Below the pieces are notes generated by a model, which saw only the letters and a list, made by a program, of their open reading frames with translations, was not told the DNA's origin and did not search any database. Positions 1 through 16,620 of a stretch of DNA of 64,000 nucleotides are shown in pieces; positions within the stretch are counted from its first letter, which is position 1, and each line of letters opens with the position of its first letter. The position numbers were made by a program, and so were the translations under genes. This DNA comes from Oscillospiraceae bacterium (GTDB lineage: Bacteria > Bacillota > Clostridia > Oscillospirales > Ruminococcaceae), in contig JAAVIC010000020.1 of NCBI GenBank assembly GCA_014799385.1, forward strand, positions 1 through 64,000. Reading direction: 5' to 3'.

Positions 1-2
1 GG

Positions 3-155
3 TGTTCCGATGGCTTCGATCTTTCGCTTAATGGACTGCTCTATCGGGGAAAGGATCACCCAACTCTGCGAACTGTCAAAGCTGTTTTCAACGGCGTTAT
101 GCTCAAAATAATCGCTCAATATAAATCATCATTTATAAGGAGAGATTTCAAATGA
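3..155 (+). CDS. C-terminal fragment of an unidentified protein (partial)
   Basis: A reading frame enters from the left edge and stays open for 50 codons, ending at a TGA at 153-155. Its last bases overlap the start codon of the recombinase at 152 as ATGA, the usual arrangement of translationally coupled genes. The residues include a basic, hydrophobic tail (RTVKAVFNGVMLKII). I do not recognise the family. The support is the open frame plus the overlap only, so it could be chance. Confidence 0.35.
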   Translation, partial: CSDGFDLSLNGLLYRGKDHPTLRTVKAVFNGVMLKIIAQYKSSFIRRDFK

Positions 156-760
156 ATTATGGGTATATTCGAGTAAGCTCGGATAAGCAGACGGTGGAAA
201 ATCAACGATTTGAGATTCAAAACTTTGCGAAGGCAAACGATCTCACTATTGACGGCTGGATTGAGGAAACCATCAGTGGAACAAAATCCTACGATAAAAG
301 GCAACTGGGGGTGCTCCTTAAAAAAGTTAAAAAAGATGATCTTATAATATGTGCGGAGCTTTCACGGCTGGGAAGAAATTTGTTTATGATAATGGAGATT
401 CTCAACATCTGCATGACCAAAGAGTGTAAGGTCTGGACTATCAAGGACAACTACCGACTGGGAGAGGATATTCAAAGCAAGGTACTCGCGTTTGCGTTCG
501 GGCTTTCCGCTGAAATTGAACGCAACCTGATAAGTCAGCGTACAAAAGAGGCACTTGCAAGAAAACGCTCGGAAGGGATAGTTCTTGGAAGACCTAAAGG
601 CAGCCGTTCATCTCATGTAAAACTCTCGGGCAAGGAAGAAACTATTCGAGTACTGCGGGAACAGAAAGTTTCAAAGTCCGAAATTGCAAGGATATTCGGT
701 GTTCATAGAATGACAGTTGACGCTTTTATAAAAAATAATAATTTGGATTATGCGGATTAG
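152..760 (+). CDS. Serine site-specific recombinase (resolvase/invertase type)
   Basis: This 202-aa protein has the length and layout of small serine recombinases. Residues 1-140 form the catalytic domain, with YIRVSSDKQ at the N-terminus placing the nucleophile at Ser9. The family arginine motif LSRLGRN lies near residue 70 and the E-helix region SAEIERNLISQRTKEAL follows. A GRPKGS hinge near residue 148 leads into a C-terminal helix-turn-helix (SKSEIARIFGVHRMTV) that would bind the crossover site. Such enzymes act as resolvases, invertases or transposon recombinases. The start is supported by AAGGAG upstream. It may belong to a mobile element whose left part lies outside the window. No obvious pair of recombination sites was seen beside it, so its substrate is unknown. 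Confidence 0.9.
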   Translation: MNYGYIRVSSDKQTVENQRFEIQNFAKANDLTIDGWIEETISGTKSYDKRQLGVLLKKVKKDDLIICAELSRLGRNLFMIMEILNICMTKECKVWTIKDNYRLGEDIQSKVLAFAFGLSAEIERNLISQRTKEALARKRSEGIVLGRPKGSRSSHVKLSGKEETIRVLREQKVSKSEIARIFGVHRMTVDAFIKNNNLDYAD

Positions 761-830
761 GTGATTAATTCTCTATCGTGATGCAGCCCTCAGGTGACAA
801 TGGCATACTTTCATATGTTTTAACAAAACG

Positions 831-862
831 ACCGCAGATTCATTGCTGCGGTTATTTCTTTT
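831..862 (+). terminator. Intrinsic terminator after the serine recombinase
   Basis: A 7-bp perfect stem (ACCGCAG at 831-837, CTGCGGT at 846-852) with an 8-nt loop is followed by a T-rich tract. It lies about 70 bp downstream of the recombinase stop codon. Confidence 0.6.
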
Positions 863-1296
863 ATTAAGCAATGCAGTTATAATGCGAGTTTAACTTGGTA
901 TCCTTAAATATGCCATACTCCCTAAACTTGTCTGAAACATATTTGAGAAACAAAATTGTTAACAGATAATCCTTATATTGGGAGATGTCAATATTATATT
1001 ATACAATAATTTTAACGAATTTTCACCACTATTTTACATTTTTTAATCTGCAGGATTTTTATGTTTTGGTAGTAATCACCAAATTAAATGCAGAAGTTTT
1101 GTTGATTTTGTAATATGGGTCACCTTAACTATAATTACATAATGATGTTAAGAAGTGGATTGTGCTTTTTCTATGTAACGGTAAAGAATATTCCTGTATA
1201 TAAATATATCTTCTAGTCGTATCTCGAAACACAAAATTTAAGTTTTCAATATTTTATGAAGACAATTAATGTAAAAATGTTGATACCGTTAATATA
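863..1296. other. AT-rich intergenic stretch without a visible gene
   Basis: This stretch is very AT-rich and has stops in all frames. I see no open frame with a ribosome site, no tRNA and no strong structured element. It separates the recombinase from the leftward TIR/SPFH operon. Confidence 0.5.
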
Positions 1297-1330
1297 ACAA
1301 AACCCGCACACCTTGTTAGGAGCGCGAGTT
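1297..1330 (-). terminator. Probable terminator of the TIR/SPFH operon
   Basis: On the minus strand an 8-bp stem with two G-U pairs (arms at about 1303-1310 and 1322-1329) is followed by TTTTG. It lies about 95 bp past the last gene of the leftward operon. Confidence 0.5.
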
Positions 1331-1423
1331 AAGCTATCCTATTCGGTTTTAGTGATTTCTCCGTTAAGGATATCACCCATTAAGGTCGGCGATAATTAAC
1401 AAAGCTACAAAAAATAAAGCGTA

Positions 1424-2116
1424 TTATGATTTTGATTCTTTGCATCTGCGGTTTCTGTCGGCTAACAAAATGGAAACCTCGTCAATCTTCTTCCGCGCAA
1501 GCTCCTTGTCGGAATTGACAATCGCGGCAAGACTTTTGACTTCACGCTTCAAATTATCCTCAATGTCGAACAATTCGTCGCACGTCACGGGATCGGAAAA
1601 CTTGAATTGATCGGCAAGCTTTTCAAGCACCTTTTTAAGTTCTGTATCGGCACAAATATCAACTATATACTGCATATCCAACCTAAACATTTTCATTTGC
1701 TTAACAGACGCTTGCGTTTGAGCCTGCTGCTCGATTATTATGTCTCGCGCGTTGTCCGTGCCGATAAATCCTATCCCCGCGACTGCGAGAATCACAATCG
1801 AAGCTACAACTGCGACCCATATCGGAACAGCAACAAAGCAACCGACAATCACAATCACACAACCGACAATAATCTGCACGATCATGTATATAAACCCGAC
1901 TTTGAACATCGGAAATCCGTAAATCTTACTTGTCAGTCCCTCGTTTTTGAATGCGTACCAACTGATTCCTGCGCCTGTGCAAATCGCGATTAGTGTGAAC
2001 GCGAATTCTACCCAAGCCGTTCCCGATTTAGGGAACGGGATCACCAAAAACAACACGCAGTAAGCTATAAATATTATCGCGTAAATCAATACAAATGATT
2101 TCATTTTCTTATTCAT
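1424..2116 (-). CDS. Four-helix membrane protein with cytoplasmic coiled tail
   Basis: This 230-aa protein has about four hydrophobic segments within residues 8-120. The rest is a charged, probably helical tail (roughly residues 125-230) rich in Lys, Glu and Leu. I do not recognise a named family. It is the third gene of the leftward TIR - SPFH - membrane operon, 11 bp after the SPFH stop codon, so co-translation is likely. A membrane partner for the SPFH protein would fit, because SPFH proteins assemble on membranes, but that is inference. Confidence 0.75.
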   Translation of the reverse strand: MNKKMKSFVLIYAIIFIAYCVLFLVIPFPKSGTAWVEFAFTLIAICTGAGISWYAFKNEGLTSKIYGFPMFKVGFIYMIVQIIVGCVIVIVGCFVAVPIWVAVVASIVILAVAGIGFIGTDNARDIIIEQQAQTQASVKQMKMFRLDMQYIVDICADTELKKVLEKLADQFKFSDPVTCDELFDIEDNLKREVKSLAAIVNSDKELARKKIDEVSILLADRNRRCKESKS

Positions 2117-2127
2117 GACAGTCTCCT

Positions 2128-3930
2128 TTACGGCGTGGTGCTGTCCGGCTTTTTAGCTCCGCAATCCGGGCAGAATTTTGAAGTGATTCCCTTATATCCG
2201 CAAGTCGGACAATCCCACGCTGCCGGTGGCTCGGGTTTTTTAGTGCCGCAATCAGGGCAGAATTTTGAAGTGATGTTCTTGCAGCCGCAGGAGCAGTCCC
2301 AGCTTTGAGGCGGCGCGGGACGCTTCGCTCCACATTCCGGGCAGCACTTTGATGTAATATTCTGTTCTCCGCAAGAGCAGTTCCATGAATCAAGAGCAAC
2401 AGTCCGTTGCACTCCCTCCGCGACTCCGCCGCCTATAGAACTTGCCGTGTTCATAATAGGATTGAGCGCGTCCCTGGTCATGTTCATAATTCCGCCCATC
2501 GTCCCAAGAGTAACTCCAAGGCTTGCAATATCGCCAATTCCTCCGCTGACACCGCCGCCGGAACCGTTTCCCGTGATACCGTTTTGCATAGCCGCCAAAC
2601 CGACTTGCCGAGCGGTTTCATCCTGATAGGTCATACCCTTCGCCTTCATAACGTTGGCTTCCGCTTCGCCGTGAGCCTGTTCGCCCGCCGCAAGCGTCTG
2701 TTCCATCAGCAGCTTCTTTCGCGCTTCGTTCTGCGCTTTTATGAAATCCACATCAGCGGCTGTTGTCGCGCGTGTGATTTGCTGAGCGCGTTCCGTTTCG
2801 GCGGTCTCCGCTTCGAGAGCGTTCAGCGACTGCGCTGCCAGCTTCTCGCGCATACGTTTGAAGTTGGGATCGTCTTCGGGAAGCGAAATCTTTCTTATGT
2901 AGAACTGCGGCATAAACAGACCGTAGTCTTCAAGCTGTATATTTATCACATCGCGTATAGCCGCCGCCAGCTTATCCTTTTGCTTATCTAAAAGGAAAAT
3001 ATCCAGCTGTTGTTCCTCGATAGTATTCGCGAGAACGTCAACGATCTTATTTAATATCAAATCCTTGAATTGCCCGGCAGCAGAGCTTGTGGAAAAATCT
3101 TCATCGCCGACAATATCTTTCTGCTTAAATTCGTCTATTGTGCCTATGTTTTTAATCAGAAACCTTCGTGCGTCCTTAACGACCATATTAAATGTGCCGA
3201 ACGCGCCGACATCTATGTACATTTTGTACTTCGGCTCTTGAACACCGATTTTGTCGGGAGTACCCCACTTGATTTCCTTCTGTTCGGTCTTGTTTACAAA
3301 ATAAATTTCCGTGCGGAAGGGGTCACCGTTGCTAAACGGCAGCGGCGCAACCTCATTCAGAAGCGGCAGTCTGTCGGTCGTAAGAACATGTCCGCCGGAA
3401 CCAAACGTATCAAGTGCCGCACCGTCCTTAAAGAATACAGCTTCTTGGCTCTCATGAACAATAAGCTTTGAGCCCGTAACAAAATTATCTATCGGGTGAC
3501 GCTTTACAAAAACTGTGTTGTCCATCTTACACTCGATAACGCTGGGCATACCACCACTCTTTGCATTGTTGGCGGCGATTTGTTGCTGAACATCAATCAC
3601 CGTATCACACAGCGGACAAGTATATTCCTTTGCGTTTTTGTCGGCGGACAGCTTGCAGGAGCAAGACGGGCAGGTAAACTCCGTAAGCGCGCTCAGGCTC
3701 TCTTGAGTAACAAGCTGCTGATGGCATACAGGGCACATAGCGTCCGTACCCTTTGTCTGGTCATAGATCGCGGTGTTGCCGCAGTGCGGACAAGTACGCG
3801 TGGTCATCTTGTCCGTGCGCACGTCAATAGTGTATCCGCACGCGCAGTCTATCTTCTTACGGGCCAAAAAGCCGGTTTTCCCCTCGGCGTAGCTGCCGCA
3901 GTGGGGACATTCTATTACGAATTTTGACAT
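2128..3930 (-). CDS. SPFH-domain protein with N- and C-terminal zinc ribbons
   Basis: This 600-aa protein starts with several Cys-pair zinc ribbons (CPHCGSY near residue 9, CPHCGNT near 47, CPVCHQQ, CPSCSCK) over the first ~115 residues. A band-7/SPFH-like domain follows at about 140-380, then an Ala/Glu-rich helical stretch and a Gly-rich linker. It ends with three closely similar zinc-ribbon repeats of the form W-x-C-x-C...I-T-S-K-x-C-P-x-C-G. This matches the 'virion core protein-like' SPFH family of Bacillota, related to YdjI of Bacillus subtilis. Such proteins oligomerise on membranes. The start follows AAGGGAG, and a 7-8 bp inverted repeat (3951-3972) sits in the leader. Its neighbours are a TIR protein upstream and a membrane protein downstream. 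Confidence 0.85.
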   Translation of the reverse strand: MSKFVIECPHCGSYAEGKTGFLARKKIDCACGYTIDVRTDKMTTRTCPHCGNTAIYDQTKGTDAMCPVCHQQLVTQESLSALTEFTCPSCSCKLSADKNAKEYTCPLCDTVIDVQQQIAANNAKSGGMPSVIECKMDNTVFVKRHPIDNFVTGSKLIVHESQEAVFFKDGAALDTFGSGGHVLTTDRLPLLNEVAPLPFSNGDPFRTEIYFVNKTEQKEIKWGTPDKIGVQEPKYKMYIDVGAFGTFNMVVKDARRFLIKNIGTIDEFKQKDIVGDEDFSTSSAAGQFKDLILNKIVDVLANTIEEQQLDIFLLDKQKDKLAAAIRDVINIQLEDYGLFMPQFYIRKISLPEDDPNFKRMREKLAAQSLNALEAETAETERAQQITRATTAADVDFIKAQNEARKKLLMEQTLAAGEQAHGEAEANVMKAKGMTYQDETARQVGLAAMQNGITGNGSGGGVSGGIGDIASLGVTLGTMGGIMNMTRDALNPIMNTASSIGGGVAEGVQRTVALDSWNCSCGEQNITSKCCPECGAKRPAPPQSWDCSCGCKNITSKFCPDCGTKKPEPPAAWDCPTCGYKGITSKFCPDCGAKKPDSTTP

Positions 3931-4019
3931 TTCCTATGTCTCCCTTCTTTACCTTAATTAGCGCATTAAGGTGCGATAATGAATCAATCGGAACTTCTAC
4001 TGCTTTGAGAGGAGAGCAT

Positions 4020-6179
4020 TTATAAATCTATATGATGGTATTTGTTTACTTGATTAATGACCATTTGCTTCTTTTCTGATATTTTTTCACTTTCAAGTAT
4101 TATGATTCGCTTAAAGTTACATTTGTAACATGGTGTGTTCTTATTATCGCAAATTTCAACTGCTCCACATTGAGGACATAGTTTTATTTTACAATTGGTT
4201 ACAAAAGTACCTTTTACGCCCAAATTTGATAGGCTGTTACTTGTCATTTCTGATGAAAATGTTTTCTGCTTACTTGTCATTTCTGATAAAAATGTTTTCT
4301 GCTTATATGAATTTTTGTCGTTGGATTTGACTGCTGCATTCCAAATAGAACCAAACAATAAAAAGCACACAAAGAAAACGAAAACACCACCACCTATTCC
4401 AAAAAGTGCAAAGCCAAAGAACTTTGTTAATCCGCTTGCGTCACTGCGGAAAATCGGAACAGAAATACATATGCAAACTATTAATGCTATAATAAAGGGA
4501 ATTACAAGAAAACTCAGTGCAGCATTTTCTCTTTTTTCATATTTGGTATTTATTTCATCGGCACTGCCATTGTGTTTGATATTTATTTCATTAACGTTGC
4601 TATTGTGTTTGAGGATAATTGATTCTATTTCGCTAAATTTTGAAATTATACCTTCTGCAACGTTTTTTTCCAATTCTATCCACTTTTTAAGTTGAATGTC
4701 ACATTCCTCGGCTTTTTGGGCGGAGTCGGAAAAATCTCCGAGCGATAAAAAATTCTTCCTAGCTTTTTGGAAATCCTCTCCTTTACTGTTTGCCGAATTC
4801 AAAATCTGGACTGCATTGTTATAAACCAGCTGGTTAGCTTTGTGCAAACATTCTTCAGCTTTTTGTGGAGCGTCTTTATAATTTTTTATGGTCTCAAAGA
4901 TTTTTTGGGCTTCATGATACTCTGATTCTGATGCAGCCACAGCCATTTTTGAACAACCGTTGTTATAAATTGCCCTTATCCGATAGTCCTCTATACGCTT
5001 TTTGGTTTCATTGTCCCCAAAGCGTAATATCTTATTGTAGTTATCGAACTCCGTAAATCCTGCTTTGTATGTTGCAAGTTCTGTCTCTTTGTTTAACTTT
5101 AACTCGGACAGAAGCTTGCATAAATATGCATTCGCATTCTCGGGATTTGCGTCAAGTGCCTTTTCTGCGTACTCGTCCGCCTTGGTAAAATCACCGTCTT
5201 CAAGGAACATCATCGCCCGCTTAACCAAAGAATCCGCCGTAGGATTTCCGCTCGCTTGCTGAATAAAATCCGATTGAGCAGTCGTCTTGGGTATGATTTT
5301 CTCAATATTGCTTACCAAATCCTGAAACGCTCTCGGACTGTTCAAATCCTGCCCCTGTAAGCTGCCGAACTCCTTGGGCATATCGTAGGGATCAATGTCG
5401 CGATAGCACGGGATAAGCATTTTTGACTTGTCGTTTTTCATCAATGACAAAAAGCGACTCCATTCGTTCTTAACCCAAACCGCGTTGAAGTACTCGAATT
5501 TCGTGCCGATAGAGAGCATTACCTTAGCCGAATTCAGAGCACTGAATATGTAAGGTTCATAGTCTTGACCGAGCTTCGCTTTGAGCGTTATTCTTGAATA
5601 GAAAACCTTGTAGCCCTTTTCGGTGAGTACATCATAAATATCATGAGCCAGTTCGCTGTCAACGGTGCGCCTACCGTTTTCGTCACTTTCCTTGTAACAA
5701 ATGAAAACATCGAACGGTTGTTCATTTTTTGCGATTTCGAGAATCTCCTTTTGAAGCCTATCTATCTCTTTTGCCTCGTTGCGGAGCTGATTTACCGCAA
5801 GCGCGTCCGCATTTTCGCAAGCTTGGTCAAAGTTTGTATCGTCAAAAATACTCTCAAAGGACGTTCTGTGACACGTTGGAATTTTGTTCGCGGTAGCGGG
5901 ATCGTCCACATACTCAATACCGAACTTGCACAAGCAAAGTCCCCAATATGCCTCGGATTCAGTCGGGAATTCCGCGACAATGCTCTCGTATACGCTCGCC
6001 GCCTTGTCGAAGTCGCACTTGCTGCGCAAACGATTCGCGCGGTTGAACAGATTGACCTTCTTTTCGTTGTCCATACTCGGAACGGTCTGCTGCCGTCCGC
6101 AATATTCGCAGGTTACGACAGTAGTTCCTTCTTGTATTTCAAGGTCTCCGCCGCAGCTCTTACAGTTAAATATAGCCAT
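4020..6179 (-). CDS. Zinc-ribbon / TIR-domain / helical-repeat membrane protein
   Basis: I place the start at the ATG at 6179 (719 aa), preceded by AGAGGTG, instead of an upstream in-frame ATG that has no ribosome site. The order is: zinc ribbon (CKSCGG...CEYCGR, residues 6-30); a helical region with TPR/Sel1-like character; a TIR domain at about 155-300 beginning FDVFICYKESDENG; more TPR-like helices; two membrane segments near residue 600; and a C-terminal CPQCG...CYKC ribbon. Glu208 in LGQDYEPYIF aligns by eye with the catalytic glutamate of NAD-cleaving TIR domains such as SARM1, so NADase activity is plausible. TIR enzymes often act in anti-phage abortive infection. The link to the SPFH gene downstream is common in gut Bacillota, but I know of no defined role. 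Confidence 0.85.
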   Translation of the reverse strand: MAIFNCKSCGGDLEIQEGTTVVTCEYCGRQQTVPSMDNEKKVNLFNRANRLRSKCDFDKAASVYESIVAEFPTESEAYWGLCLCKFGIEYVDDPATANKIPTCHRTSFESIFDDTNFDQACENADALAVNQLRNEAKEIDRLQKEILEIAKNEQPFDVFICYKESDENGRRTVDSELAHDIYDVLTEKGYKVFYSRITLKAKLGQDYEPYIFSALNSAKVMLSIGTKFEYFNAVWVKNEWSRFLSLMKNDKSKMLIPCYRDIDPYDMPKEFGSLQGQDLNSPRAFQDLVSNIEKIIPKTTAQSDFIQQASGNPTADSLVKRAMMFLEDGDFTKADEYAEKALDANPENANAYLCKLLSELKLNKETELATYKAGFTEFDNYNKILRFGDNETKKRIEDYRIRAIYNNGCSKMAVAASESEYHEAQKIFETIKNYKDAPQKAEECLHKANQLVYNNAVQILNSANSKGEDFQKARKNFLSLGDFSDSAQKAEECDIQLKKWIELEKNVAEGIISKFSEIESIILKHNSNVNEINIKHNGSADEINTKYEKRENAALSFLVIPFIIALIVCICISVPIFRSDASGLTKFFGFALFGIGGGVFVFFVCFLLFGSIWNAAVKSNDKNSYKQKTFLSEMTSKQKTFSSEMTSNSLSNLGVKGTFVTNCKIKLCPQCGAVEICDNKNTPCYKCNFKRIIILESEKISEKKQMVINQVNKYHHIDL

Positions 6180-6200
6180 ATTAACACCTCTTAAAGAATA

Positions 6201-6244
6201 ATTATAACATAATTCAACAGCGTTTTGGTCTACTGCTGGTAGAC
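6201..6244 (-). promoter_or_regulatory. TIR-operon promoter with GTCTAC-N5-GTAGAC operator
   Basis: On the minus strand a perfect -10 (TATAAT, 6206-6201) lies 21 bp downstream of a perfect inverted repeat, GTCTAC-N5-GTAGAC (6228-6244), which occupies the place of the -35. The ribosome site and ATG of the TIR gene follow within 25 bp. The same palindrome at the same distance from TATAAT occurs at 19067-19110. A regulator that binds over the -35 is the simplest reading. Confidence 0.7.
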
Positions 6245-6256
6245 TTTTTATCACAC

Positions 6257-6280
6257 AGTCGCAGAATACACCCTACTGCG
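6257..6280 (+). repeat. Left 24-bp inverted repeat of the recombinase segment
   Basis: These 24 bp are the exact reverse complement of 7582-7605. Each copy has internal dyad arms CGCAG and CTGCG separated by 11 bp, the layout of a tyrosine-recombinase core site (two half-sites around a crossover region). Confidence 0.85.
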
Positions 6281-6342
6281 GCAAACACCGTAACAAAGCC
6301 ACTTGAAGCGAATTTCGACTGAAAATTTGACGAGAAATAGCT

Positions 6343-7410
6343 CTACATTGTCAGCATGTCCATGCTGTTCTGCTTTAGTTCAAACGAGGAATGAACATAC
6401 TTGTTCAAGGTCGTTTTTACATCGGCATGACCAAGCAGCTCGGAAAGGGTTTTCACGTCTACTCCAACTTCGATACACCGTGTGGCGAATGTGTGCCGTA
6501 GCGCGTGGAAGTTCGCTTTTTCAAGTCCGCAAGCGGCTACGATCTTTGTGAATTTCCTTTGGAGCAGTCGCGGTTCGACAATATTTCCGTTCTCTTGCAA
6601 GAGAACATTACCGCTTGGCTTTCGGTGTTGTTCAATGACTGACAGCAGAATTTTGGGAATAGGAATTATGCGATCCGATGAACTTGTTTTCGGTGGCAGT
6701 ATCACGATTTCGGTCTTTTCGGAATCAGATTTCAGCCGCTGCATGGTTCTTTGAATATGAATCGTATTAGCAGAAACGTCCTCCCACCGAAGCGCACAAA
6801 CCTCGCCAATACGAAGTCCGGTATAAAGCGTGAGAAGTATTCCAAACGAATAGATGTCATTTTGGTCGAGCAGTTTCTTCACAAGAACTTGCTGTTCCAT
6901 TGGCGAGAAAACTCGCATACTCGCCTTAGAGGTTTTCAAGAAGCGAATCTCGGGCAAAGTCACTTGATACCGTTCGCGGGCATACTTGAATCCCATTCCC
7001 AGAACCATCAAAATTTGATTGATCGTTTCCATTGATAAATGTTTGGCTAACAAACTATCGGAAAATTGCGCGATAATCTGAGCAGTAACACACTTCAAAG
7101 GCAGTTTTCCGAGACGTTCGGAGATGTGATTTTGGACTATCGCCTGATACTTCCGATAACTTGAGATTTTAAGCCGGTTTTTGCTGCTGTCAAGCCATTC
7201 GCTCATCAGCTCGCCGACCGTTTCGGCACACTTTTTGGTGTTTTCTGATTGCTGATTTATCTTGACTAGTTGCTTCGCTTTGACTTCACGGTACGTTTTC
7301 GCGTAAACCGAACCGTACCTCTTCGTTCCGTCAAGCGCGATCTCCTTGATGTACCGCGCCTCCCAACGCCCGTCCTTGCGCTTGTAAATATTTTCTCCTC
7401 GTCTTGGCAT
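6343..7410 (-). CDS. Tyrosine recombinase/integrase, catalytically complete
   Basis: This 355-aa protein has the standard integrase layout: an N-terminal arm-type DNA-binding region (residues 1-60), a SAM-like core-binding domain (about 65-150) and a catalytic domain. The full catalytic set is visible: Arg200 (TGLRIGE), Lys241, His302 and Arg305 (FHALRHTFAT), His328 (LLGHAD) and Tyr338 (LNKYVH). The start has GGAG upstream. The gene lies wholly between the 24-bp inverted repeats at 6257-6280 and 7582-7605, so it probably acts on those sites. Whether it integrates, excises or inverts cannot be told from the protein alone; the inverted orientation of the sites favours inversion. Confidence 0.93.
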   Translation of the reverse strand: MPRRGENIYKRKDGRWEARYIKEIALDGTKRYGSVYAKTYREVKAKQLVKINQQSENTKKCAETVGELMSEWLDSSKNRLKISSYRKYQAIVQNHISERLGKLPLKCVTAQIIAQFSDSLLAKHLSMETINQILMVLGMGFKYARERYQVTLPEIRFLKTSKASMRVFSPMEQQVLVKKLLDQNDIYSFGILLTLYTGLRIGEVCALRWEDVSANTIHIQRTMQRLKSDSEKTEIVILPPKTSSSDRIIPIPKILLSVIEQHRKPSGNVLLQENGNIVEPRLLQRKFTKIVAACGLEKANFHALRHTFATRCIEVGVDVKTLSELLGHADVKTTLNKYVHSSFELKQNSMDMLTM

Positions 7411-7534
7411 GGCGAATTCTCCTTTTTATTTTTATGATAGCACATTGACGGGGCATTTGACCATAATTAGCAAAATTTTACGAAAAACGGCATTGTTAAG
7501 TTCGCGAATATTGTCAATTTTCACCAAAAAGCAC

Positions 7535-7563
7535 TTGACTTTTGCAGAAAATTGTGTTATAAT
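7535..7563 (+). promoter_or_regulatory. Strong outward promoter inside the invertible segment
   Basis: TTGACT (7535-7540), a 17-bp spacer and TATAAT (7558-7563), with a TG one base upstream of the -10 (extended -10). Transcription would start near 7570 and cross the right inverted repeat toward the XRE gene. The spacer shares the 11-mer GCAGAAAATTG with the promoter at 13136-13164. Confidence 0.75.
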
Positions 7564-7581
7564 ATATAATAATTATAGTAT

Positions 7582-7605
7582 CGCAGTAGGGTGTATTCTG
7601 CGACT
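7582..7605 (-). repeat. Right 24-bp inverted repeat of the recombinase segment
   Basis: Perfect reverse complement of 6257-6280. The match ends abruptly on both sides, as expected for a defined recombination site. Confidence 0.85.
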
Positions 7606-7745
7606 AAAAATATCTGTAATTTGCGCTGTTCTACTAATGAGCAACGCATTTTTAATGAATTGGCTCATAGTACATAAATTTCTTAATTTGATATTCTTAG
7701 TATATCACAAATGCAAGAAAATGTCAATAGTCTCTGTAAATATCT

Positions 7746-7782
7746 TTTCAATATTCATATACTAGATATATAGATATTGAAA
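7746..7782 (+). promoter_or_regulatory. Palindromic operator in front of the XRE gene
   Basis: Nine-bp arms TTTCAATAT (7746-7754) and ATATTGAAA (7774-7782) surround a possible -10 (TATACT, 7758-7763), and the right arm runs into the AAGGAGG ribosome site. Auto-repression by the XRE protein is the likely purpose. Confidence 0.5.
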
Positions 7783-7794
7783 GGAGGTACAGAG

Positions 7795-8127
7795 ATGAGC
7801 GAATTATCCAGTGAGATTGGAAAGAGAATACGGAACTACCGAACGCAGTTGAAACTAAGTCAAGAGGAGCTTGCCGAGAGGTGCAGCCTTCACCCGACCT
7901 ACATCGGGCAGGTTGAACGCGGCGAGAAGAACGCGACCATTGAGAGCATAAGCAAAATCGCCGGCGGGCTGAATGTTCCGCTGAGTACGCTGTTTGAGAA
8001 CCTTGAGGGAACTGCTGTGTCCGAAAGAAGCTGCGCAGGGGAAGCATATGATCTGATTCAAGCATTGTCGGTTGATTCACAGGAGAAGGTGCTTGAAATA
8101 TTAAAGGCAATTCTGGAACTGGAATAA
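7795..8127 (+). CDS. XRE/Cro-CI family transcriptional regulator
   Basis: The start is the ATG at 7795, placed just after AAAGGAGG; an upstream in-frame codon overlaps that ribosome site. The 110-aa product has an N-terminal helix-turn-helix (residues 9-65; LSQEELAERCSLHPTYIGQVERGEKN), typical of XRE repressors, and a short C-terminal helical tail probably for dimerisation. It lies about 100 bp upstream of the large helicase gene, in the same direction and downstream of the outward promoter of the invertible segment. A role as regulator of the helicase locus and of its own promoter is likely. Confidence 0.88.
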   Translation: MSELSSEIGKRIRNYRTQLKLSQEELAERCSLHPTYIGQVERGEKNATIESISKIAGGLNVPLSTLFENLEGTAVSERSCAGEAYDLIQALSVDSQEKVLEILKAILELE

Positions 8128-8227
8128 TTGTTAAAGCTTTCTGTATTTTTACGGAAGAGCCTTAATAATGTCATGTTATGAGGCATAGCTAAAATTGTAA
8201 AATACGCAAATCAAATGAGGAGAGCCT

Positions 8228-11200
8228 ATGAAACCGACAATTCTGTTTTTTGATACCGAAATAAGCTGCGACGACAATATCAAAGACCTGGGCGCGATTT
8301 ACGAAAATGGAAACGCTTTTCATTCCGCGTCAATAAGTGAGTTTTCGGAATTTATTTCGGAGGCGGATTTCCTTTGCGGTCACAACATCATTCACCACGA
8401 TTTGAAATACGTTTTGCCGAAATTAAAAAACGCACGATTTAAATATATCGACACGCTGTATCTATCGCCCCTGCTGTTCCCCGAACGCCCTTATCACGCA
8501 CTTCTAAAGGACGATAAGCTGCTCTCCGATGAGCTTAACAATCCGCTTAATGATTCGCAAAAGGCGCAAAAGCTGTTTTACGATGAGGTGAACGCATTTC
8601 TCGAACTTGACGAGCGCATAAAGATAATCTATTATAATCTGCTTAGTTCGCGTGAAGAGTTCAGCGGATTTTTCGATTATTTGGAGTACTCCGGGAAATG
8701 CGATGACATTTCAGCATTTATTCGTGAAACATATTCCGGGAAAATCTGCGAAAACGCCGATATTGGATCACTCTCCGAACAGCGTCCCGTTGAGCTTGTC
8801 TATGCGCTTGCTCTTATCGGTACAGAGGATTATCATTCGGTTACTCCGCCGTGGCTTATCCATAATTTCCCGAATGTCGAAAATGTCGTAAAACTGCTTT
8901 GCGGCACACGATGCAAAAAAGGGTGCGCTTATTGCAGCTCCGCGCTTGATATTCATAAAAAGTTGGGGGAGTTTTTCGGCTTTAACGAGTTCAGAACCTA
9001 TGACGGCGAACCGCTCCAGGAAAATGCCGCGCAAGCCGCTGTTAATGGGAGATCTTTGCTTGCTGTGTTCCCGACGGGAGGTGGAAAATCAATAACATTT
9101 CAGCTGCCCGCTTTAATAGCGGGACAAGCCGAGCGCGGACTTACCGTGATTATTTCCCCGCTTCAGTCGCTGATGAAGGATCAAGTGGACAACCTCTCCG
9201 AAAAGGGGTTGGTGGAAGCGGTTACAATCAACGGATTGCTTTCTCCGATAGAGCGCACCGACGCTATCGAGCGCGTGCAAAGCGGGCTTGCCGCAATGCT
9301 TTATATCTCACCCGAACAGCTGCGTTCCCGTTCAATCGAGCGGCTGCTGCTGTCGCGCAATGTTGTGCGTTTTGTAATAGACGAGGCACATTGCTTTTCT
9401 GCGTGGGGTCAAGATTTCCGCGTGGATTATCTGTACATTGGTGATTTTATCCGCGAGTATCAGGAGAAAAAGGCACTCGGCGGCACGATTCCCGTTTCCT
9501 GTTTTACCGCAACGGCAAAGCAAAAGGTTATAAGCGATATTCGCGACTATTTCAAGGAAAAGTTAGGTCTTGAACTGGAGCTTTTCGCCACCGATGCACA
9601 GCGCCGGAACTTACATTACACCGTGCTTTACAAAGCAGGCGACGGGGAAAAATACGCGGCTTTGCGCGGACTTATCGCGAGGAAAAACTGTCCAACGATA
9701 GTCTACGTTTCAAGGACCCGCAAAACCCGGGAACTTGCCGAAGCATTGTCAAAGGACGGCTTTCCCGCTCTGCCTTATAACGGGAAAATGGATTCTCCCG
9801 AAAAAGTCGCCAACCAAGAGGCATTTATGAACGGCGAGGTAAATATCATTGTCGCTACCTCCGCTTTCGGAATGGGAGTGGACAAAAGCGATGTCGGTCT
9901 GGTGGTACATTACGATATTTCGGATTCACTGGAAAATTACGTTCAGGAGGCGGGCAGAGCGGGGCGCGATCCCTCTCTTAACGCTGACTGCTACGTTCTG
10001 TTCAACGATGAGGATCTGAATAAGCATTTTATTCTGTTGAATCAAACTAAGGTGAGTATCGGTGATATTCAACAGGTTTGGTCTGCTATGAAAGAAATGA
10101 TGAAATATCGCCCTACCGTGTGCAGTTCTCCGTTGGAGATCGCGCGTAAGGCGGGTTGGGACGATACGGTGAGCGATGTGGAAACCCGCGTCAAGACCGC
10201 GATCGCAGCACTTGAACAGGCAGGCTATATCAAGCGCGGGCATAATGTGCCGCACGTTTACGCCACGGGTTTGACGGTGAAAAATCAAGAGGAAGCGCGC
10301 ATAAAAATCGAAAACTCAAATCTGTTTTCGGAGGAACAGAAGAAACAATCCATACGTATTATAAAATGCTTGATTTCCGAAAGGAGCCGTTCAAAAACCG
10401 ATTCCGAACAAGCCGAATCGCGAATTGATTATCTTGCCGATAATCTGTCTATGGACAAGCGTGACGTTATCAACTGCGTGAATTTAATGCGCCAAGCGGG
10501 AGTTCTTGCCGATACTATGGATATGTCGGCGTATATTTACAGCGGGGACAGCGAAAACCGCGCTTTGAAAATTCTCAATCAGTTTGCGGGATTGGAGAGA
10601 TTTTTGCTCGATCAATTCTCCGAGGAGGAAAAAGAATATAACCTCAAGGAACTGAATGAAGCCTCCCAGAACACGGGAATAAATTTTGCCAATGTCAAAA
10701 GAATAAATACTGTTTTGAATTTTCTGACAACAAAGGAATATATCACAAGGGAACGTACAGGCGGCGACAATGTAAAAATCTGCTTCAAAAGCAAGCTGGA
10801 TGAGCTTAGGGAGCGGTTCTACAGACGATATAAAATTGCCGAATTTGCCGTAAAAAAGCTTTATTCCGAGGCGTTGGCTTCAATACAAACAGCAACCTCA
10901 AAAAACAAAGCACTGATACAGTTTTCGGTTGTAGGAATTTTAAGCGAATTTTCAGAGCAGTCCGATTTGACAATAGGCGAAATTTCTCTTTCTGATGTTG
11001 AGGACGCGCTTTTGTATTTATCCCAAATCGGTTCAATGGAACTTGAGGGCGGTTTTTTCGTGCTGTATAACGGCTTGGAATTAAAGAGACTTATTCTCGA
11101 CAACAAAATACGTTACAAAAAAGAAGATTACTGCTCTCTTGACGACTACTATAAGCACAAGATCCAGCAGATACATATAGTCGGCGAGTTTGCAAATTTA

Positions 11201-13048
11201 ATGGTTAAGGACTATGATTCCGCTTTGCGGTTCGTACAGGACTATTTCCAAATGGACTTCAAGAAATTCATCGCTAAATATTTCAAAGGCGAACGCGCTG
11301 TGGAAATTATGCGTAATATCTCTCCCGAAAAATATCACCAAATAGTGGACGATTTGTCTGACATTCAAAAGCAGATCATTAACGATACCGAATCGAAATA
11401 TATTGTAGTTGCAGCAGGTCCCGGAAGCGGAAAAACGCGCGTTTTGGTGCACAAACTAGCGTCACTTATGATGCTGGAGGACGCGAAGCACGAGCAGCTT
11501 TTGATGCTGACGTTCTCCCGCGCGGCGGCAACCGAGTTCAAAAAGCGACTGATAGAGCTTATCGGAAACGCGGCAAATTTCGTTGAAATAAAGACATTCC
11601 ATTCATATTGCTTTGACCTGCTTGGAAAAATCGGCAGTCTTGACGGAGTAAAGGAAGTAATTCCAAAAGCCGTGGAGATGATAAAAAATGGAGAGGTGGA
11701 GCAAGGGAGAATTACGAAAACCGTGCTTTTAATCGATGAAGCGCAGGATATGGATAAGCACGAACACGCGCTTGTTCGCGCTCTTATGAGCCGAAACGAG
11801 GATATGCGCGTTATCGCGGTAGGCGATGATGATCAGAATATATATGAGTGGCGCGGCTCAAGCTCCGAATATATGCGTTCTTTTATTGACGAATTGGGCG
11901 CGACAAAATACGAGCTTACCCAAAATTACCGCAGCCGCCCCAATATCGTTGAGCTTGCGAACGAACTGGTGAAAACCATTCATAATCGAATGAAAATAAT
12001 ACCGATTTCCGCTGTAAATTCCGAAAACGGTATTGTTGAAATAACCCGTTATAAGAGTATAAATCTTGAGGAACCCATTGTAGAAAATGTTATTGAAACA
12101 TATCGCGGCGGCAAAGCTTGTGTTTTGACAGTCACCAATGAGGAAGCCTTGCGCGTTTGCACTCTGCTTAACAAGCGCGGTATCCGCGCACGGCTTATCC
12201 AGTCGCTTGACGGGTTTAGATTAAGCAATCTGGCGGAAATCAGGTTCTTCTTGAAGAAGATAGACTCGGAACTGAAATCCGCCGTAATAAGCAATGAAAT
12301 TTGGGAGAACGCAAAACGCTCTCTTAATGAATGTTTCCGAGAAAGTGAGTGTCTGGAAAATTGCGACAATCTCATTTCGGATTTTGAGAAAACTCACACC
12401 TATTCAAAATACCGTACCGATTTGGAGGAATTTATTAATCAATCGAATTACGAGGATTTTTATACGGACGAATTGGACGCGGTTTACGTTTCAACTATTC
12501 ACAAGGCAAAGGGCAGAGAGTTTGGTAACGTTTATATGCTTCTTAATAACTTCACTCTCGACGGCGGGGCGGAAAGCCGCAATCTGTATGTCGGTATGAC
12601 AAGAGCCAAAAACGAGCTTTATATCCATTGCGGCAACGGAATTTTTGAAATGTTCAACATTCCGGATATTAATAAAACGTATGATGAGAAAATGTATACC
12701 GCTCCCGATGAAATTACTTTATCGCTTACTCTCAAAGACGTTGTGCTAAGTTTTTTCAAAGGGAAAAAGCCGCTTATTTTCAGACTTCAAAGCGGTATGC
12801 CGTTAAATGTTGACGGAAGCTATCTCACCGCCGTGATAGACGGTGAGATACAACGGATTGCGAAGCTTTCAAAAGGCTGCGTTGAAAAAATCGAAGGACT
12901 TACCTCAAAGGGATATTCGCCGGTCGGCGCGAAAGTGCGGTTTATTGTCGCGTGGAAAGAAGATACCGACGAGGAAGAGAGTGCGGTGGTGTTGGCAGAT
13001 TTATATATGGAAAAATGGGATCGGAGATATTATCAATTTCTACAATAG
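8228..13048 (+). CDS. Exonuclease-like / RecQ / UvrD-like fusion helicase (1,606 aa)
   Basis: The protein joins three activities. Residues 1-~110 resemble a DnaQ-type 3'-5' exonuclease (FFDTE, then GHNIIHHDLKYV). A Cys cluster near residue 230 (CGTRCKKGCAYC) may bind zinc. A RecQ-type superfamily 2 helicase follows, with Walker A FPTGGGKS near 280, DEAHC near 382, and AGRAGRD. From about residue 1055 a UvrD/Rep-type superfamily 1 helicase has AAGPGSGKT, DEAQDMD, GDDDQNIYEWRG, TIHKAKG and VGMTRAK. ATP-driven DNA unwinding coupled to strand trimming is the expected chemistry. Similar giant RecQ-UvrD fusions occur sporadically in bacteria. Placement between recombinases and an ATPase/TOPRIM pair suggests genome defence or DNA repair; this is inference. 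The start follows GAGGAGAG. Confidence 0.88.
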   Translation: MKPTILFFDTEISCDDNIKDLGAIYENGNAFHSASISEFSEFISEADFLCGHNIIHHDLKYVLPKLKNARFKYIDTLYLSPLLFPERPYHALLKDDKLLSDELNNPLNDSQKAQKLFYDEVNAFLELDERIKIIYYNLLSSREEFSGFFDYLEYSGKCDDISAFIRETYSGKICENADIGSLSEQRPVELVYALALIGTEDYHSVTPPWLIHNFPNVENVVKLLCGTRCKKGCAYCSSALDIHKKLGEFFGFNEFRTYDGEPLQENAAQAAVNGRSLLAVFPTGGGKSITFQLPALIAGQAERGLTVIISPLQSLMKDQVDNLSEKGLVEAVTINGLLSPIERTDAIERVQSGLAAMLYISPEQLRSRSIERLLLSRNVVRFVIDEAHCFSAWGQDFRVDYLYIGDFIREYQEKKALGGTIPVSCFTATAKQKVISDIRDYFKEKLGLELELFATDAQRRNLHYTVLYKAGDGEKYAALRGLIARKNCPTIVYVSRTRKTRELAEALSKDGFPALPYNGKMDSPEKVANQEAFMNGEVNIIVATSAFGMGVDKSDVGLVVHYDISDSLENYVQEAGRAGRDPSLNADCYVLFNDEDLNKHFILLNQTKVSIGDIQQVWSAMKEMMKYRPTVCSSPLEIARKAGWDDTVSDVETRVKTAIAALEQAGYIKRGHNVPHVYATGLTVKNQEEARIKIENSNLFSEEQKKQSIRIIKCLISERSRSKTDSEQAESRIDYLADNLSMDKRDVINCVNLMRQAGVLADTMDMSAYIYSGDSENRALKILNQFAGLERFLLDQFSEEEKEYNLKELNEASQNTGINFANVKRINTVLNFLTTKEYITRERTGGDNVKICFKSKLDELRERFYRRYKIAEFAVKKLYSEALASIQTATSKNKALIQFSVVGILSEFSEQSDLTIGEISLSDVEDALLYLSQIGSMELEGGFFVLYNGLELKRLILDNKIRYKKEDYCSLDDYYKHKIQQIHIVGEFANLMVKDYDSALRFVQDYFQMDFKKFIAKYFKGERAVEIMRNISPEKYHQIVDDLSDIQKQIINDTESKYIVVAAGPGSGKTRVLVHKLASLMMLEDAKHEQLLMLTFSRAAATEFKKRLIELIGNAANFVEIKTFHSYCFDLLGKIGSLDGVKEVIPKAVEMIKNGEVEQGRITKTVLLIDEAQDMDKHEHALVRALMSRNEDMRVIAVGDDDQNIYEWRGSSSEYMRSFIDELGATKYELTQNYRSRPNIVELANELVKTIHNRMKIIPISAVNSENGIVEITRYKSINLEEPIVENVIETYRGGKACVLTVTNEEALRVCTLLNKRGIRARLIQSLDGFRLSNLAEIRFFLKKIDSELKSAVISNEIWENAKRSLNECFRESECLENCDNLISDFEKTHTYSKYRTDLEEFINQSNYEDFYTDELDAVYVSTIHKAKGREFGNVYMLLNNFTLDGGAESRNLYVGMTRAKNELYIHCGNGIFEMFNIPDINKTYDEKMYTAPDEITLSLTLKDVVLSFFKGKKPLIFRLQSGMPLNVDGSYLTAVIDGEIQRIAKLSKGCVEKIEGLTSKGYSPVGAKVRFIVAWKEDTDEEESAVVLADLYMEKWDRRYYQFLQ

Positions 13049-13135
13049 CTTTTCTGTGTCCAATCATAAATACGGTTCTGTATAATATTAATTGAAAAAT
13101 GTCGAAGCCCTCCGTAATTTTTTTACGAAAGACTA

Positions 13136-13164
13136 TTGACATAGGCAGAAAATTGCGGTATAAT
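13136..13164 (+). promoter_or_regulatory. Sigma-A promoter of the ATPase/TOPRIM pair
   Basis: TTGACA (13136-13141), a 17-bp spacer and TATAAT (13159-13164). The spacer contains GCAGAAAATTG, identical to the spacer of the promoter at 7535-7563. Confidence 0.8.
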
Positions 13165-13196
13165 AGATATATAGCGTTAGTGATGGGGGGATATCT

Positions 13197-14336
13197 GTGC
13201 TTAAGCTTTTCGAGGTTGAGGGATTCAAGAATTTCAAGGACAAAATAACCTTTGACTTTTCCGATGTTAGGGATTATAAATTTAATACGCAGTGCATTTC
13301 CAATAATTTGTTAGGCAAGACCATTGTTTACGGAAAAAATTCTGTGGGTAAGACTAACCTTGGGTTTGCGATGTTTGATATTGTTACACATTTGACAACA
13401 AACAATGTTAATCTCGATTTGTATGAAAATTATATGTGTTCCATCGAATTTTACAAATTTATGAGTGAGGGTATACGGTTTCATTATATTTTTTTATTTG
13501 AATCCAATATAATAGATTACGTCTATACTAAAGATCTTAGACAAAACTTACTCTATGAGAAGATTGAAATAAACAGTAAATTGTTATTTGAATATAGTTT
13601 TGCTGATAAATCCGGGAATCTTGAAGCGTTAAAAGAGTTGTCACCGACATTAAATTTATCTATGATCAATATGAGTTCCGTTTTAAGATATGTAGTGAAC
13701 AATACTGTTCTTTCTGATGATCACCCATTACGTCAGCTGATTCAGTTTGTTTCAAAGATGTTGTGGTTTGCAGGCTCTGATAAAAATCGTTTTATCGGAT
13801 ACAAAGCGAATAATAAAGATTATTATGATTTTATATCTGAAAATGATAATCTTTGTGAATTTGAAAAAATGCTTCATGATGCCGGAATAAAAGGTAATTT
13901 ACATGTTTGCACAGATAATGACGGAAAGAAGCGGCTATATTTTACGGGAAAACATGATAAAATAACGAATAGTTCGTTAAATATGCCTTTTTTCTCGGTC
14001 GCTTCCAGTGGCACCAAAGCGCTCTACAACTTCTTTTATTGGTACAAAACCGCCGCAGATGTATCGCTTATGTTTATTGACGAATTTGACGCTTATTATC
14101 ATTATGAATTGTCAGAAACGATTGTCAAGATTCTCGAAAAAATGAGCAATACACAGGTGATTTTGACATCACATAATACGAATTTGCTCTCAAATCGGAT
14201 TATGCGTCCAGACTGCTTCTTTATAATGACGGAGCGTGGTTTAACCTCGTTTGCCAATGCTACAGATCGCGAACTTCGAGAGGGTCACAATCTTGAAAAA
14301 TTGTATATGAGCGGTGAATTCGATGGCGGGAAATAA
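13197..14336 (+). CDS. AAA ATPase of the OLD/RloA/AbiL-like group
   Basis: This 379-aa protein starts at a GTG preceded by a G-run. The N-terminus FEVEGFKNF is the hallmark of RecF/SMC-like ATP-binding proteins of the AAA_15/AAA_21 group, with Walker A GKNSVGKT at 46-53. Near the C-terminus are a Walker B-like MFIDEFDAYYHYEL and VILTSHNTNLLS (switch histidine). Such ATPases pair with a nuclease in several defence systems (AbiL, PARIS, Septu, Gabija-like). The next gene overlaps its end by 14 bp and is TOPRIM-like, giving a two-gene module. The exact system is not established by motifs alone. The region is AT-richer than the helicase gene before it, which may indicate separate acquisition. Confidence 0.82.
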   Translation: MLKLFEVEGFKNFKDKITFDFSDVRDYKFNTQCISNNLLGKTIVYGKNSVGKTNLGFAMFDIVTHLTTNNVNLDLYENYMCSIEFYKFMSEGIRFHYIFLFESNIIDYVYTKDLRQNLLYEKIEINSKLLFEYSFADKSGNLEALKELSPTLNLSMINMSSVLRYVVNNTVLSDDHPLRQLIQFVSKMLWFAGSDKNRFIGYKANNKDYYDFISENDNLCEFEKMLHDAGIKGNLHVCTDNDGKKRLYFTGKHDKITNSSLNMPFFSVASSGTKALYNFFYWYKTAADVSLMFIDEFDAYYHYELSETIVKILEKMSNTQVILTSHNTNLLSNRIMRPDCFFIMTERGLTSFANATDRELREGHNLEKLYMSGEFDGGK

Positions 14337-15051
14337 GTCGAAAATTCTGGTGCTGGTCGAGGGTGCTAAGACTGATGTTAGACTTATGGAACACTTGCTG
14401 AATATCTATGGCATAAGCGAAAAACACACGATTGTTCCGTATTACACGAATATCTACACCTTGTACAACGAAATGTTCCGTGATAACAATCCCGATGAGA
14501 TCGATTTGCGCCAGTTGCTTAAGGAACGTGAGCAAGACCCGGAAAAGAAGCTTATTTTTGATGAAAACTATTCGGATATTTTGCTGATATTTGATTTAGA
14601 TCCGCACGCTCCGGATTTTTCGGCGGATAAGATACGGGAAATGTCCGAATATTTTAACGAATCATCGGATATGGGCAAGTTGTATATCAATTATCCTATG
14701 GTAGAGGCTTTTTATCATATGAATAGTATTCCCGACATGGAATACTATTCGCGGTATGCGACAATAGAAGAACTTCAGGCGAAAGAATACAAACAGCGCG
14801 TCAACAGAGAAAACCGCAATCATGATTACAGTAAATTCGCGGTTGACAAAGCCGAATGTAATATAGTTATTCGCCAGAATATTGATAAGGGATTCTTATT
14901 ATGCGGCATTGACGATCCGCAAGTGCCGCTGCCCGATTCTGCCGAGATTTTAAGCGTTCAACTTGACACTATCGAAAAGGAGCAGAGAATGGCGGTGCTT
15001 TGCACCTGCGCGTTCTACATAGTTGATTATAATCCCAAGCTGATCGAGTAA
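14323..15051 (+). CDS. TOPRIM-like putative nuclease partner of the ATPase
   Basis: I take the ATG at 14323 as start (242 aa); a GTG nine bases upstream is also possible. The N-terminal VLVEGAKTD (Glu13) and the IFDLDPH motif (Asp91, Asp93) match the metal-binding pattern of TOPRIM domains as found in RloB, AbiLii, AriB and OLD nucleases. The rest has no recognised motif. Overlap with the upstream ATPase gene implies coupled translation and a stable complex, in which the ATPase would sense and this protein would cut nucleic acid. Function is inferred from the pairing. Confidence 0.7.
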   Translation: MAGNKSKILVLVEGAKTDVRLMEHLLNIYGISEKHTIVPYYTNIYTLYNEMFRDNNPDEIDLRQLLKEREQDPEKKLIFDENYSDILLIFDLDPHAPDFSADKIREMSEYFNESSDMGKLYINYPMVEAFYHMNSIPDMEYYSRYATIEELQAKEYKQRVNRENRNHDYSKFAVDKAECNIVIRQNIDKGFLLCGIDDPQVPLPDSAEILSVQLDTIEKEQRMAVLCTCAFYIVDYNPKLIE

Positions 15052-15076
15052 CACATTTGTTGGGGGAGGGGAGTAT

Positions 15077-16284: not shown

Positions 16285-16294
16285 CTTTGGTGGT

Positions 16295-16341
16295 CGCCCA
16301 CCTCGCGTCCACCAAAATTAAAGCTGGTGGGCGGACTTTTT
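16295..16341 (+). terminator. Terminator after the integrase
   Basis: An 8-bp stem, CGCCCACC (16295-16302) with GGTGGGCG (16326-16333), is followed by GACTTTTTG. The loop is long (23 nt), so the call is moderate. Confidence 0.5.
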
Positions 16342-16360
16342 GTCCGCAGTGACTGATAAT

Positions 16361-16399
16361 AAAAAATAGTACGCCATATCGTCTAGAGATACGGCGTAC
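16361..16399 (-). terminator. Long hairpin with T-run on the minus strand
   Basis: A 12-bp stem with one mismatch (arms 16369-16380 and 16388-16399, loop of 7) is followed on the minus strand by TATTTTTT. No leftward gene is visible between here and the kinase start, so it may protect the island from read-through or be a remnant. Confidence 0.5.
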
Positions 16400-16527
16400 C
16401 GATTTATCAAAATCTATTGATCATTATGTGACCCTCGGCGAGAAAAAAATCTAATCCGTTGAACATTTTGCTGTTATCCTTATATTGTTCATATTGCAGC
16501 GCGCCTCCGCAAATGATTAAGGGCGTG
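16400..16527. other. Intergenic stretch without a gene (part of 16285-16620)
   Basis: The 336-bp gap between the integrase and the kinase contains the two stem-loops above and the kinase promoter. The remaining bases show no open frame or tRNA-like sequence. An attachment site could lie here, because integrases usually border theirs, but no direct repeat was recognised. Confidence 0.4.
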
Positions 16528-16556: not shown

Positions 16557-16620
16557 AGGGACAGCCAATATCCTAAAAAATTACATTTGATTAAAGTCAG
16601 CGCAATATTGGGAACTGAAA

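What the first reader, a model, noticed from the sequence alone, without database searches (positions are those of the whole stretch)
6257..7605. Self-contained invertible promoter between two accessory systems
Perfect 24-bp inverted repeats, each with CGCAG/CTGCG half-sites around an 11-bp centre, enclose a complete tyrosine recombinase and a consensus extended -10 promoter that points out of the right end. Flipping the segment would turn the promoter from the XRE/helicase side to the TIR/SPFH side. This would be a phase switch choosing between two putative defence units, with the recombinase carried inside the moving segment. The repeats, gene and promoter are seen; the switch is inferred.
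Basis: partly seen in the sequence, partly recalled or inferred. Interest (0 to 1): 0.85.

Follow-up and report, generated by a model that had tools for sequence, protein, structure and literature searches.

The report
Self-flipping promoter cassette beside TIR operon
A 1.35-kilobase piece of DNA in a clostridium-like bacterium carries its own probable flipping enzyme and an outward promoter; it belongs to a family of such cassettes, and here it most likely turns a neighbouring TIR-protein operon on and off rather than choosing between two defence systems.

Summary
In detail: perfect 24-bp inverted repeats (6257-6280, 7582-7605) enclose a tyrosine recombinase and a near-consensus promoter (7535-7563) pointing right. 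It is one of a family. Of 90 recombinases examined, 68 lie between such repeats, and 60 of those 68 carry a strong outward promoter. Repeats differ between elements but match within each, as recombination between them would maintain. Homologous genes lie on opposite sides of the cassette in 31 locus pairs, but no pair has both flanks swapped, so insertion in either orientation is not excluded. Flipping of this copy is inferred.

The "choice between two defence units" is not supported. In the family the promoter usually faces a terminator-like hairpin (44 of 62, against 12 of 62 on the other side). The window fits: the promoter faces a hairpin (7622-7648) and an RNA structure hiding the XRE start site, while no terminator-like site was found on the way to the TIR-SPFH operon after a flip. 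Best reading: an ON/OFF switch for the TIR operon, assembled OFF. Neither gene next to the cassette is a proven defence gene. Closest known: the Hin segment (serine enzyme) and fim/RecV switches (enzyme outside).

The parts
6257..6280 (+). left inverted repeat / recombination site
   Evidence: family site pattern
7582..7605 (-). right inverted repeat / recombination site, identical to the left one
6343..7410 (-). tyrosine recombinase, 355 aa, inside the segment
   Evidence: Pfam Phage_integrase and SAM-like N-terminal domain; fetched relatives 35-63% identical
7535..7563 (+). outward promoter TTGACT-N17-TATAAT with extended -10; would point left to the TIR operon after inversion
7622..7648 (+). 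terminator-like hairpin followed by TTTTT, directly in the path of the present promoter
   Evidence: (-10.7 kcal/mol, z -3.03); not listed by the consensus scan
7699..7727 (-). leftward promoter-like site TTGACA-N17-TATACT in the XRE upstream block, pointing into the cassette
   Evidence: upstream block conserved with two XRE relatives, L130 and L131
7730..7796 (+). RNA hairpin that covers the XRE ribosome-binding site and most of the start codon in a long transcript; a transcript starting near 7765 leaves them free
   Evidence: -27.8 kcal/mol, z -7.35; short form -0.2; weaker in two cassette-free relatives (-12.2 and -15.9)
7795..8127 (+). XRE-type regulator, 110 aa from the ATG
   Evidence: Pfam HTH_3; ATG read
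8228..13048 (+). RecQ-UvrD helicase fusion, 1606 aa; not shown to be controlled by the cassette
   Evidence: without XRE and with a different upstream region in L129
4020..6179 (-). TIR-TPR protein, first gene of the likely target operon
   Evidence: start inferred from homologues that match from residue 23-28 of the longer ORF in most cases
2128..3930 (-). SPFH/Band-7 protein, likely target operon
   Evidence: same gene order in L132
1424..2116 (-). 230-aa protein, likely target operon, no Pfam match
6201..6206 (-). extended -10 of a probable promoter of the TIR gene itself, with an upstream palindrome at 6227-6245
   Evidence: a like palindrome plus extended -10 upstream of 2 of the 5 TIR homologues looked at (one in L140, one in L141)

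Best explanation
This is a self-contained promoter-inversion cassette. The recombinase acts on the two inverted sites and flips the 1.35-kb segment that carries its own gene and a strong outward promoter beside its 5' end. In the assembled orientation the promoter fires right, into a terminator-like hairpin and then an XRE leader whose start site is masked: the OFF state. After inversion the promoter fires left, with no terminator-like site found in its path, into the TIR-SPFH-230aa operon: the ON state, added to that operon's own probable promoter. SHOWN here: repeats, gene, promoter, hairpins, the family layout, and cassettes in either direction relative to homologous operons. INFERRED: that cassettes flip in living cells, that this copy still does, that the hairpin stops transcription, and that the TIR operon is the target.
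For: Inverted repeats flank 68 of 90 recombinases; among those with at least 260/150 nt of flank 67 of 80, against 3 of 269 other genes tested in like manner. A 14-mer is shared across the gene in 65 of 90 true pairs and 3 of 90 mismatched pairs. Repeats are perfect in 62 of 68, with 66 distinct sequences. Outward promoter score at least 9 in 60 of 68; inward 0 of 68; downstream side 0 of 68. Terminator-like hairpin on the promoter-facing side 44 of 62, other side 12 of 62; shuffles 15 of 186 and 7 of 186; facing side only 39, other side only 7. Homologous adjacent genes on opposite sides in 31 locus pairs. L010 and L018: cassettes 93% identical, homologous operon at opposite ends, and one spacer substitution carried by both repeats of each element. 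Window: hairpin and masked start site.
Against: No reads and no second strain of this species, so inversion of this copy is unseen. No locus pair has both flanks swapped (0 pairs), while 4 pairs have both flanks on the same side; L010 and L018 share only the operon flank. So independent insertion in either direction could explain the opposite cases. One near-identical element has the same orientation in every copy found (L078, L080, L081, L156-L158, possibly partly the same genomes). The 7622-7648 hairpin is weaker (-10.7) than most listed and was not listed. The TIR gene may have its own promoter. 13 of 80 relatives with enough flank gave no repeat at first; 3 of those 13 did with mismatches allowed. 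The loci are related, so the Fisher value (1e-8) is not a clean probability. My confidence was 0.68 before and is lowered for it.
Confidence: 0.62

Rival explanations
1. Two-way toggle: right orientation expresses XRE-helicase, left orientation expresses TIR-SPFH.
For: Genes point outward on both sides. 23 of 68 cassettes, the window among them, have outward genes on both sides. The right hairpin is modest.
Against: A terminator-like hairpin plus a masked XRE start site lie in the right path. Of 21 non-duplicate cassettes with outward genes on both sides, 9 have a terminator-like site only on the promoter-facing side, 6 only on the other, 2 on both and 4 on neither. The abortive-infection-like pair has its own promoter-like site. 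A defence role of the TIR, SPFH or helicase genes is unproven.
Confidence: 0.18
2. Locked remnant: the cassette once inverted but is now fixed, and the promoter is a passive leftover.
For: Only one orientation is held for this species. Near-identical L078-type copies all share one orientation.
Against: Open recombinase frame with a near-full catalytic-domain match; repeats still perfect at 24 nt, although identity would be expected to decay without recombination.
Confidence: 0.11
3. A small moving element whose ends are the repeats, inserted in either direction, with the outward promoter incidental or selected only when it faces a gene.
For: L127 and L128 cassettes are 89% identical with identity ending within two bases of the outer repeat ends and no match in 1.2 kb of flank. 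No pair has both flanks swapped.
Against: Sites are inverted, not direct, so simple excision is not expected of this enzyme class (established knowledge). No duplicated target bases outside the window repeats. The promoter more often faces a terminator-like site than an open path, which makes sense only if it can turn. Both repeats of an element share the same spacer change.
Confidence: 0.09

Closest known systems
Hin segment of Salmonella flagellar phase variation
   Same: Recombinase gene inside the invertible segment, with inverted sites at the ends; a paper names Hin as the example of a recombinase within its segment (PMC5903667, passages seen). Outward promoter in the segment (recalled).
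   Different: Hin is a serine recombinase (passage in PMC11868660). Here a tyrosine recombinase with two arms around a short variable centre.
FimB/FimE fimS switch and C. difficile RecV switches
   Same: Tyrosine recombinase, inverted repeats, ON/OFF expression (PMC5903667, passages; fim recalled).
   Different: RecV is needed for several separate switches; the gene lies outside the segment (recalled). Here it is inside, with element-specific sites.
Invertons catalogued in gut bacteria (PhaseFinder and successors)
   Same: Invertible promoters, also in Clostridia-like Firmicutes_A; inverton group 139, mostly Firmicutes_A, has tyrosine-type recombinase genes enriched nearby (PMC11892184, passages). 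Such groups could include relatives of this cassette; I could not compare sequences.
   Different: The original PhaseFinder catalogue is described as intergenic regions (PMC11868660, passage), which would tend to leave out a segment filled by a gene (inference). PMC11892184 did also look at genes overlapping invertons. Jiang 2019 itself was not held.

Membership tests
Invertible promoter (inverton) | inverted repeats around a promoter | tested here: met
Invertible promoter (inverton) | both orientations observed at one locus | tested here: inconclusive
   31 locus pairs with homologous genes on opposite sides, but 0 pairs with both flanks swapped; no reads for this copy
Invertible promoter (inverton) | orientation changes expression of the neighbour | not testable with these tools
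   needs RNA
Hin-type self-contained inversion segment | recombinase encoded inside the segment | tested here: met
Hin-type self-contained inversion segment | serine recombinase | tested here: not met
   Pfam Phage_integrase, a tyrosine recombinase family
FimB/RecV-type tyrosine switch | tyrosine recombinase with inverted repeats | tested here: met
   (sequence level; activity not tested)
FimB/RecV-type tyrosine switch | recombinase gene outside the switch | tested here: not met
   gene between the repeats
Insertion sequence / transposon | target-site duplication outside the repeats | tested here: not met
   different bases on the two sides of the window copy
Known anti-phage system on the left (TIR-SPFH) | match to a curated defence model | tested here: not met
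   PADLOC none; NCBIfam Thoeris ThcB4 at 23 bits against a cut-off of 220
Candidate anti-phage system on the right (PDC-M12) | both subunits match the models | tested here: met
   PDC-M12A 5.7e-112 and PDC-M12B 4.2e-87; a candidate system with its own promoter-like site, not adjacent to the cassette

The most novel reading that the evidence does not exclude
A widespread family of portable bet-hedging modules in Clostridia: a tyrosine recombinase, its own private pair of sites and an outward promoter form a unit that moves between loci and mobile elements, and makes whatever operon it lands beside phase-variable, defence-type, surface, regulatory and other genes alike, with a terminator on the far side as the OFF sink.
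Probability: 0.5. Interest if true: 0.8.

Novelty: new variant of a known kind. Interest (0 to 1): 0.6.

Why it matters
If true, a class of ON/OFF switches in gut Clostridia has probably been under-counted, because the first catalogue of invertible promoters covered intergenic DNA and these segments hold a gene. The private sites would make each switch independent of the others. The module can be recognised from sequence alone (repeats, recombinase, promoter, terminator), so its targets and its ON fraction could be measured in existing long-read gut data.

Tried and rejected
Excising element: direct-orientation 14-mers across the gene were as rare as in mismatched pairs, 3 of 90 each. A second copy of the site elsewhere in the own genome: none at up to 3 mismatches. 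The exact site in viral contigs: none. The site in 197 genomes of the family: 10 matched at up to 3 mismatches, the own genome among them; the other nine were not pursued. Inversion shown through near-identical L078 copies: all found in the same orientation. A viral-contig search with the L078 recombinase gave nine loci (L147-L155), not analysed further. Plasmid search with the L078 block: no record covers 80% of the query, and the rows listed cover only its far end. Search for a locus pair with both flanks swapped: none. Naive gene calling on the flanks misjudged the XRE side and was replaced by a coding-score caller; its counts (outward gene on the downstream side 58 of 68, on the upstream side 28 of 68) miss short genes. 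Literature searches showed, in the parts listed (25 of 76, 18 of 18, 0, 11 of 12, 25 of 110, 2 and 7 papers), no title or abstract start on a tyrosine-recombinase family inside its own invertible promoter; the library lacks most subscription papers, so this is no proof of absence. No structure prediction was made. No tRNA in the window and no Rfam match in 1-20000.

Full report
What is there. The sequence at 6257-7605 is as described. The repeats are perfect, each with CGCAG-N11-CTGCG. The enclosed ORF is a tyrosine recombinase on the minus strand. A promoter with 11 of 12 consensus positions and an extended -10 lies at 7535-7563 on the plus strand. The core site is found twice in the own genome at up to 3 mismatches, both here.

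A family, not a single case. With the window that is 90. They are not all independent; L078, L080 and L081 are near-identical. I asked whether inverted repeats flank each gene. They do in 68 of 90, and in 67 of 80 with enough flank, against 3 of 269 other genes tested in like manner. Pairing one locus's upstream side with another's downstream side gives a shared 14-mer in 3 of 90, the true pairing in 65 of 90. The repeats are perfect in 62 of 68, yet there are 66 different sequences: each element keeps its own pair. Of the 68 sites, 53 that hold an anchor motif were stacked: two arms, about TTTCGYAGAGT and ACTCTRCGAA, stand around a variable centre of 5-6 bases. Part of the left arm is conserved by the choice of anchor; the right arm is not. 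This is the usual form of a tyrosine-recombinase site (established knowledge).

The promoter is part of the design. Between the recombinase start and its upstream repeat, a promoter pointing outward scores at least 9 (my own weights) in 60 of 68 loci. Promoters pointing inward reach that in 0 of 68, and on the downstream side in 0 of 68. The 14 best further loci from the same genus all have repeats of at least 20 nt; 10 of 14 reach 9 outward, four (L107-L110) do not, and one (L116) also reaches 9 inward.

Either direction beside homologous operons. Genes next to the cassette were compared between loci. Homologues lie on the same side in 52 locus pairs and on opposite sides in 31; several of the 31 are weak (22-30% identity), and the recombinases of these pairs are 54-97% identical. 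The best case is L010 and L018: cassettes 93% identical over 1475 bases, the homologous operon (71% over 711 bases) beginning at the repeat in both, at opposite ends. One spacer base differs between the two elements, and in each element both repeats carry its version, as expected if recombination keeps them equal. Against this reading: L010 and L018 share only the operon flank; no pair among the loci compared has both flanks swapped, while 4 have both flanks on the same side; and the L078-type element, identical or 97% alike, has the same orientation in every copy found. Insertion in either direction is therefore not excluded by these comparisons. The equal repeats are the stronger sign of recombination.

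A terminator where the promoter points. In 62 cassettes with at least 150 nt of flank (four others and two duplicates left out), a terminator-like hairpin of -10 kcal/mol or better within 200 nt lies on the side the promoter faces in 44, on the other side in 12. Shuffled flanks give 15 of 186 and 7 of 186. Facing side only: 39. Other side only: 7. Both: 5. Neither: 11. A looser rule gives 49 of 64 and 24 of 64. In 26 of 30 loci with a converging gene on the facing side and an outward gene on the other, only the facing side has the hairpin. Some of these hairpins will belong to the converging genes; they would insulate all the same. Thus the promoter usually faces a stop with an operon behind the other end, which looks like an OFF state. 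In 33 of 65 cassettes a further terminator-like hairpin follows the recombinase inside the segment; the window has none by that rule.

The window in this light. Facing right, the promoter meets a hairpin at 7622-7648 (-10.7 kcal/mol, z -3.03) with five T. Next comes the XRE leader, whose long form folds at -27.8 kcal/mol (z -7.35) and covers the ribosome-binding site and most of the start codon, while a transcript starting near 7765 leaves them free. In two relatives of the XRE without a cassette the fold is weaker, -12.2 and -15.9. So XRE looks shielded from upstream transcription. Facing left after inversion, the hairpin at 6227-6245 is listed as terminator-like on the plus strand only, and no leftward terminator-like site was found on that side. 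The likely target is the operon TIR (4020-6179), SPFH (2128-3930), 230-aa protein (1424-2116); the same three genes stand in this order in L132. The TIR gene may have its own promoter, a palindrome with an extended -10, also seen upstream of 2 of 5 TIR homologues looked at (one each in L140 and L141). The cassette would add to it.

Defence or not. The TIR and SPFH proteins match no PADLOC model; an NCBIfam Thoeris match is far below its cut-off. The helicase is RecQ plus UvrD; an 85%-identical copy in L129 has no XRE before it, though the contig ends soon after the gene. Behind it in the window, PDC-M12A and B match strongly but have a consensus promoter of their own. Other family members do lie near defence-type genes: PglX as second gene in L007, an HKD-Snf2/DrmD-like helicase behind an XRE gene in L048, a HerA-like protein behind an XRE gene in L089. 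Of 10 proteins scanned there, four had no PADLOC hit. Targets in general are mixed: of 98 downstream-side outward genes scanned (of 104 listed), 9 match HTH_3, with two, three or single matches to surface, transport and peptidase families among the 25 of 141 families shown; of 42 upstream-side ones, 5 match HTH_3 and 5 TetR_N.

Movement. L127 and L128, the nearest relatives (62-63% to the window recombinase), have cassettes 89% identical with the same repeat, identity ending within two bases of the outer repeat ends, and no match in 1.2 kb of flank on either side. L005 and L006 (82%) also have unrelated flanks, but their identity stops about 45 bases short of the upstream end and their repeats differ. 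The cassette thus seems to change place as a unit; how is not known. Exchange between two places flanked by like repeats is one possibility (inference).

Literature. Passages only were seen: PMC5903667, PMC11892184, PMC11868660, PMC10939037. PMC11892184 reports, for inverton group 139, mostly Firmicutes_A, a nearby enrichment of tyrosine-type recombinases; relatives of this cassette may be among them, which would lower the novelty. Listings are told in Tried and rejected.

Noticed in passing
window 13197-15051: Two-gene candidate defence unit PDC-M12A/B (AbiLi-like ATPase plus partner) with a consensus promoter at 13136-13164.
   Followed up: partly
window 15077-16189: Tyrosine integrase whose best Pfam match stops at profile position 144 of 172; probably incomplete at its C-terminus, perhaps a trace of a former mobile element.
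   Followed up: no
window 7667-8127: XRE gene with about 130 bp of upstream DNA conserved in L130 and L131; homologues at 60-62% identity in L130, L131, L134 next to unrelated genes, and at 49-71% near other cassettes (L013, L034, L084). The XRE may have arrived together with the cassette.
   Followed up: partly
window 1424-6179 and 16621-19011; L132, L140, L141: TIR-SPFH-230aa module recurs in the genus, in L132 next to a kinase-like and a 143-aa gene resembling those at 16621-19011 of the window (judged by eye from the ORF lists); second TIR copies in L140 and L141. Function unknown.
   Followed up: partly
L055 7401-7766 and 9175-9540: 366 bp perfect inverted repeat made of the flanks themselves on both sides of a cassette; real duplication or assembly of both orientations.
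   Followed up: no
L078 9530-9800: A near-identical block with a cassette, shared between Butyricicoccus, Agathobaculum and Blautia records, has an erm(B)-type gene beyond its downstream end.
   Followed up: partly
L107-L110: Same-genus cassettes with good repeats but no outward promoter scoring 9; they may use another promoter class.
   Followed up: no
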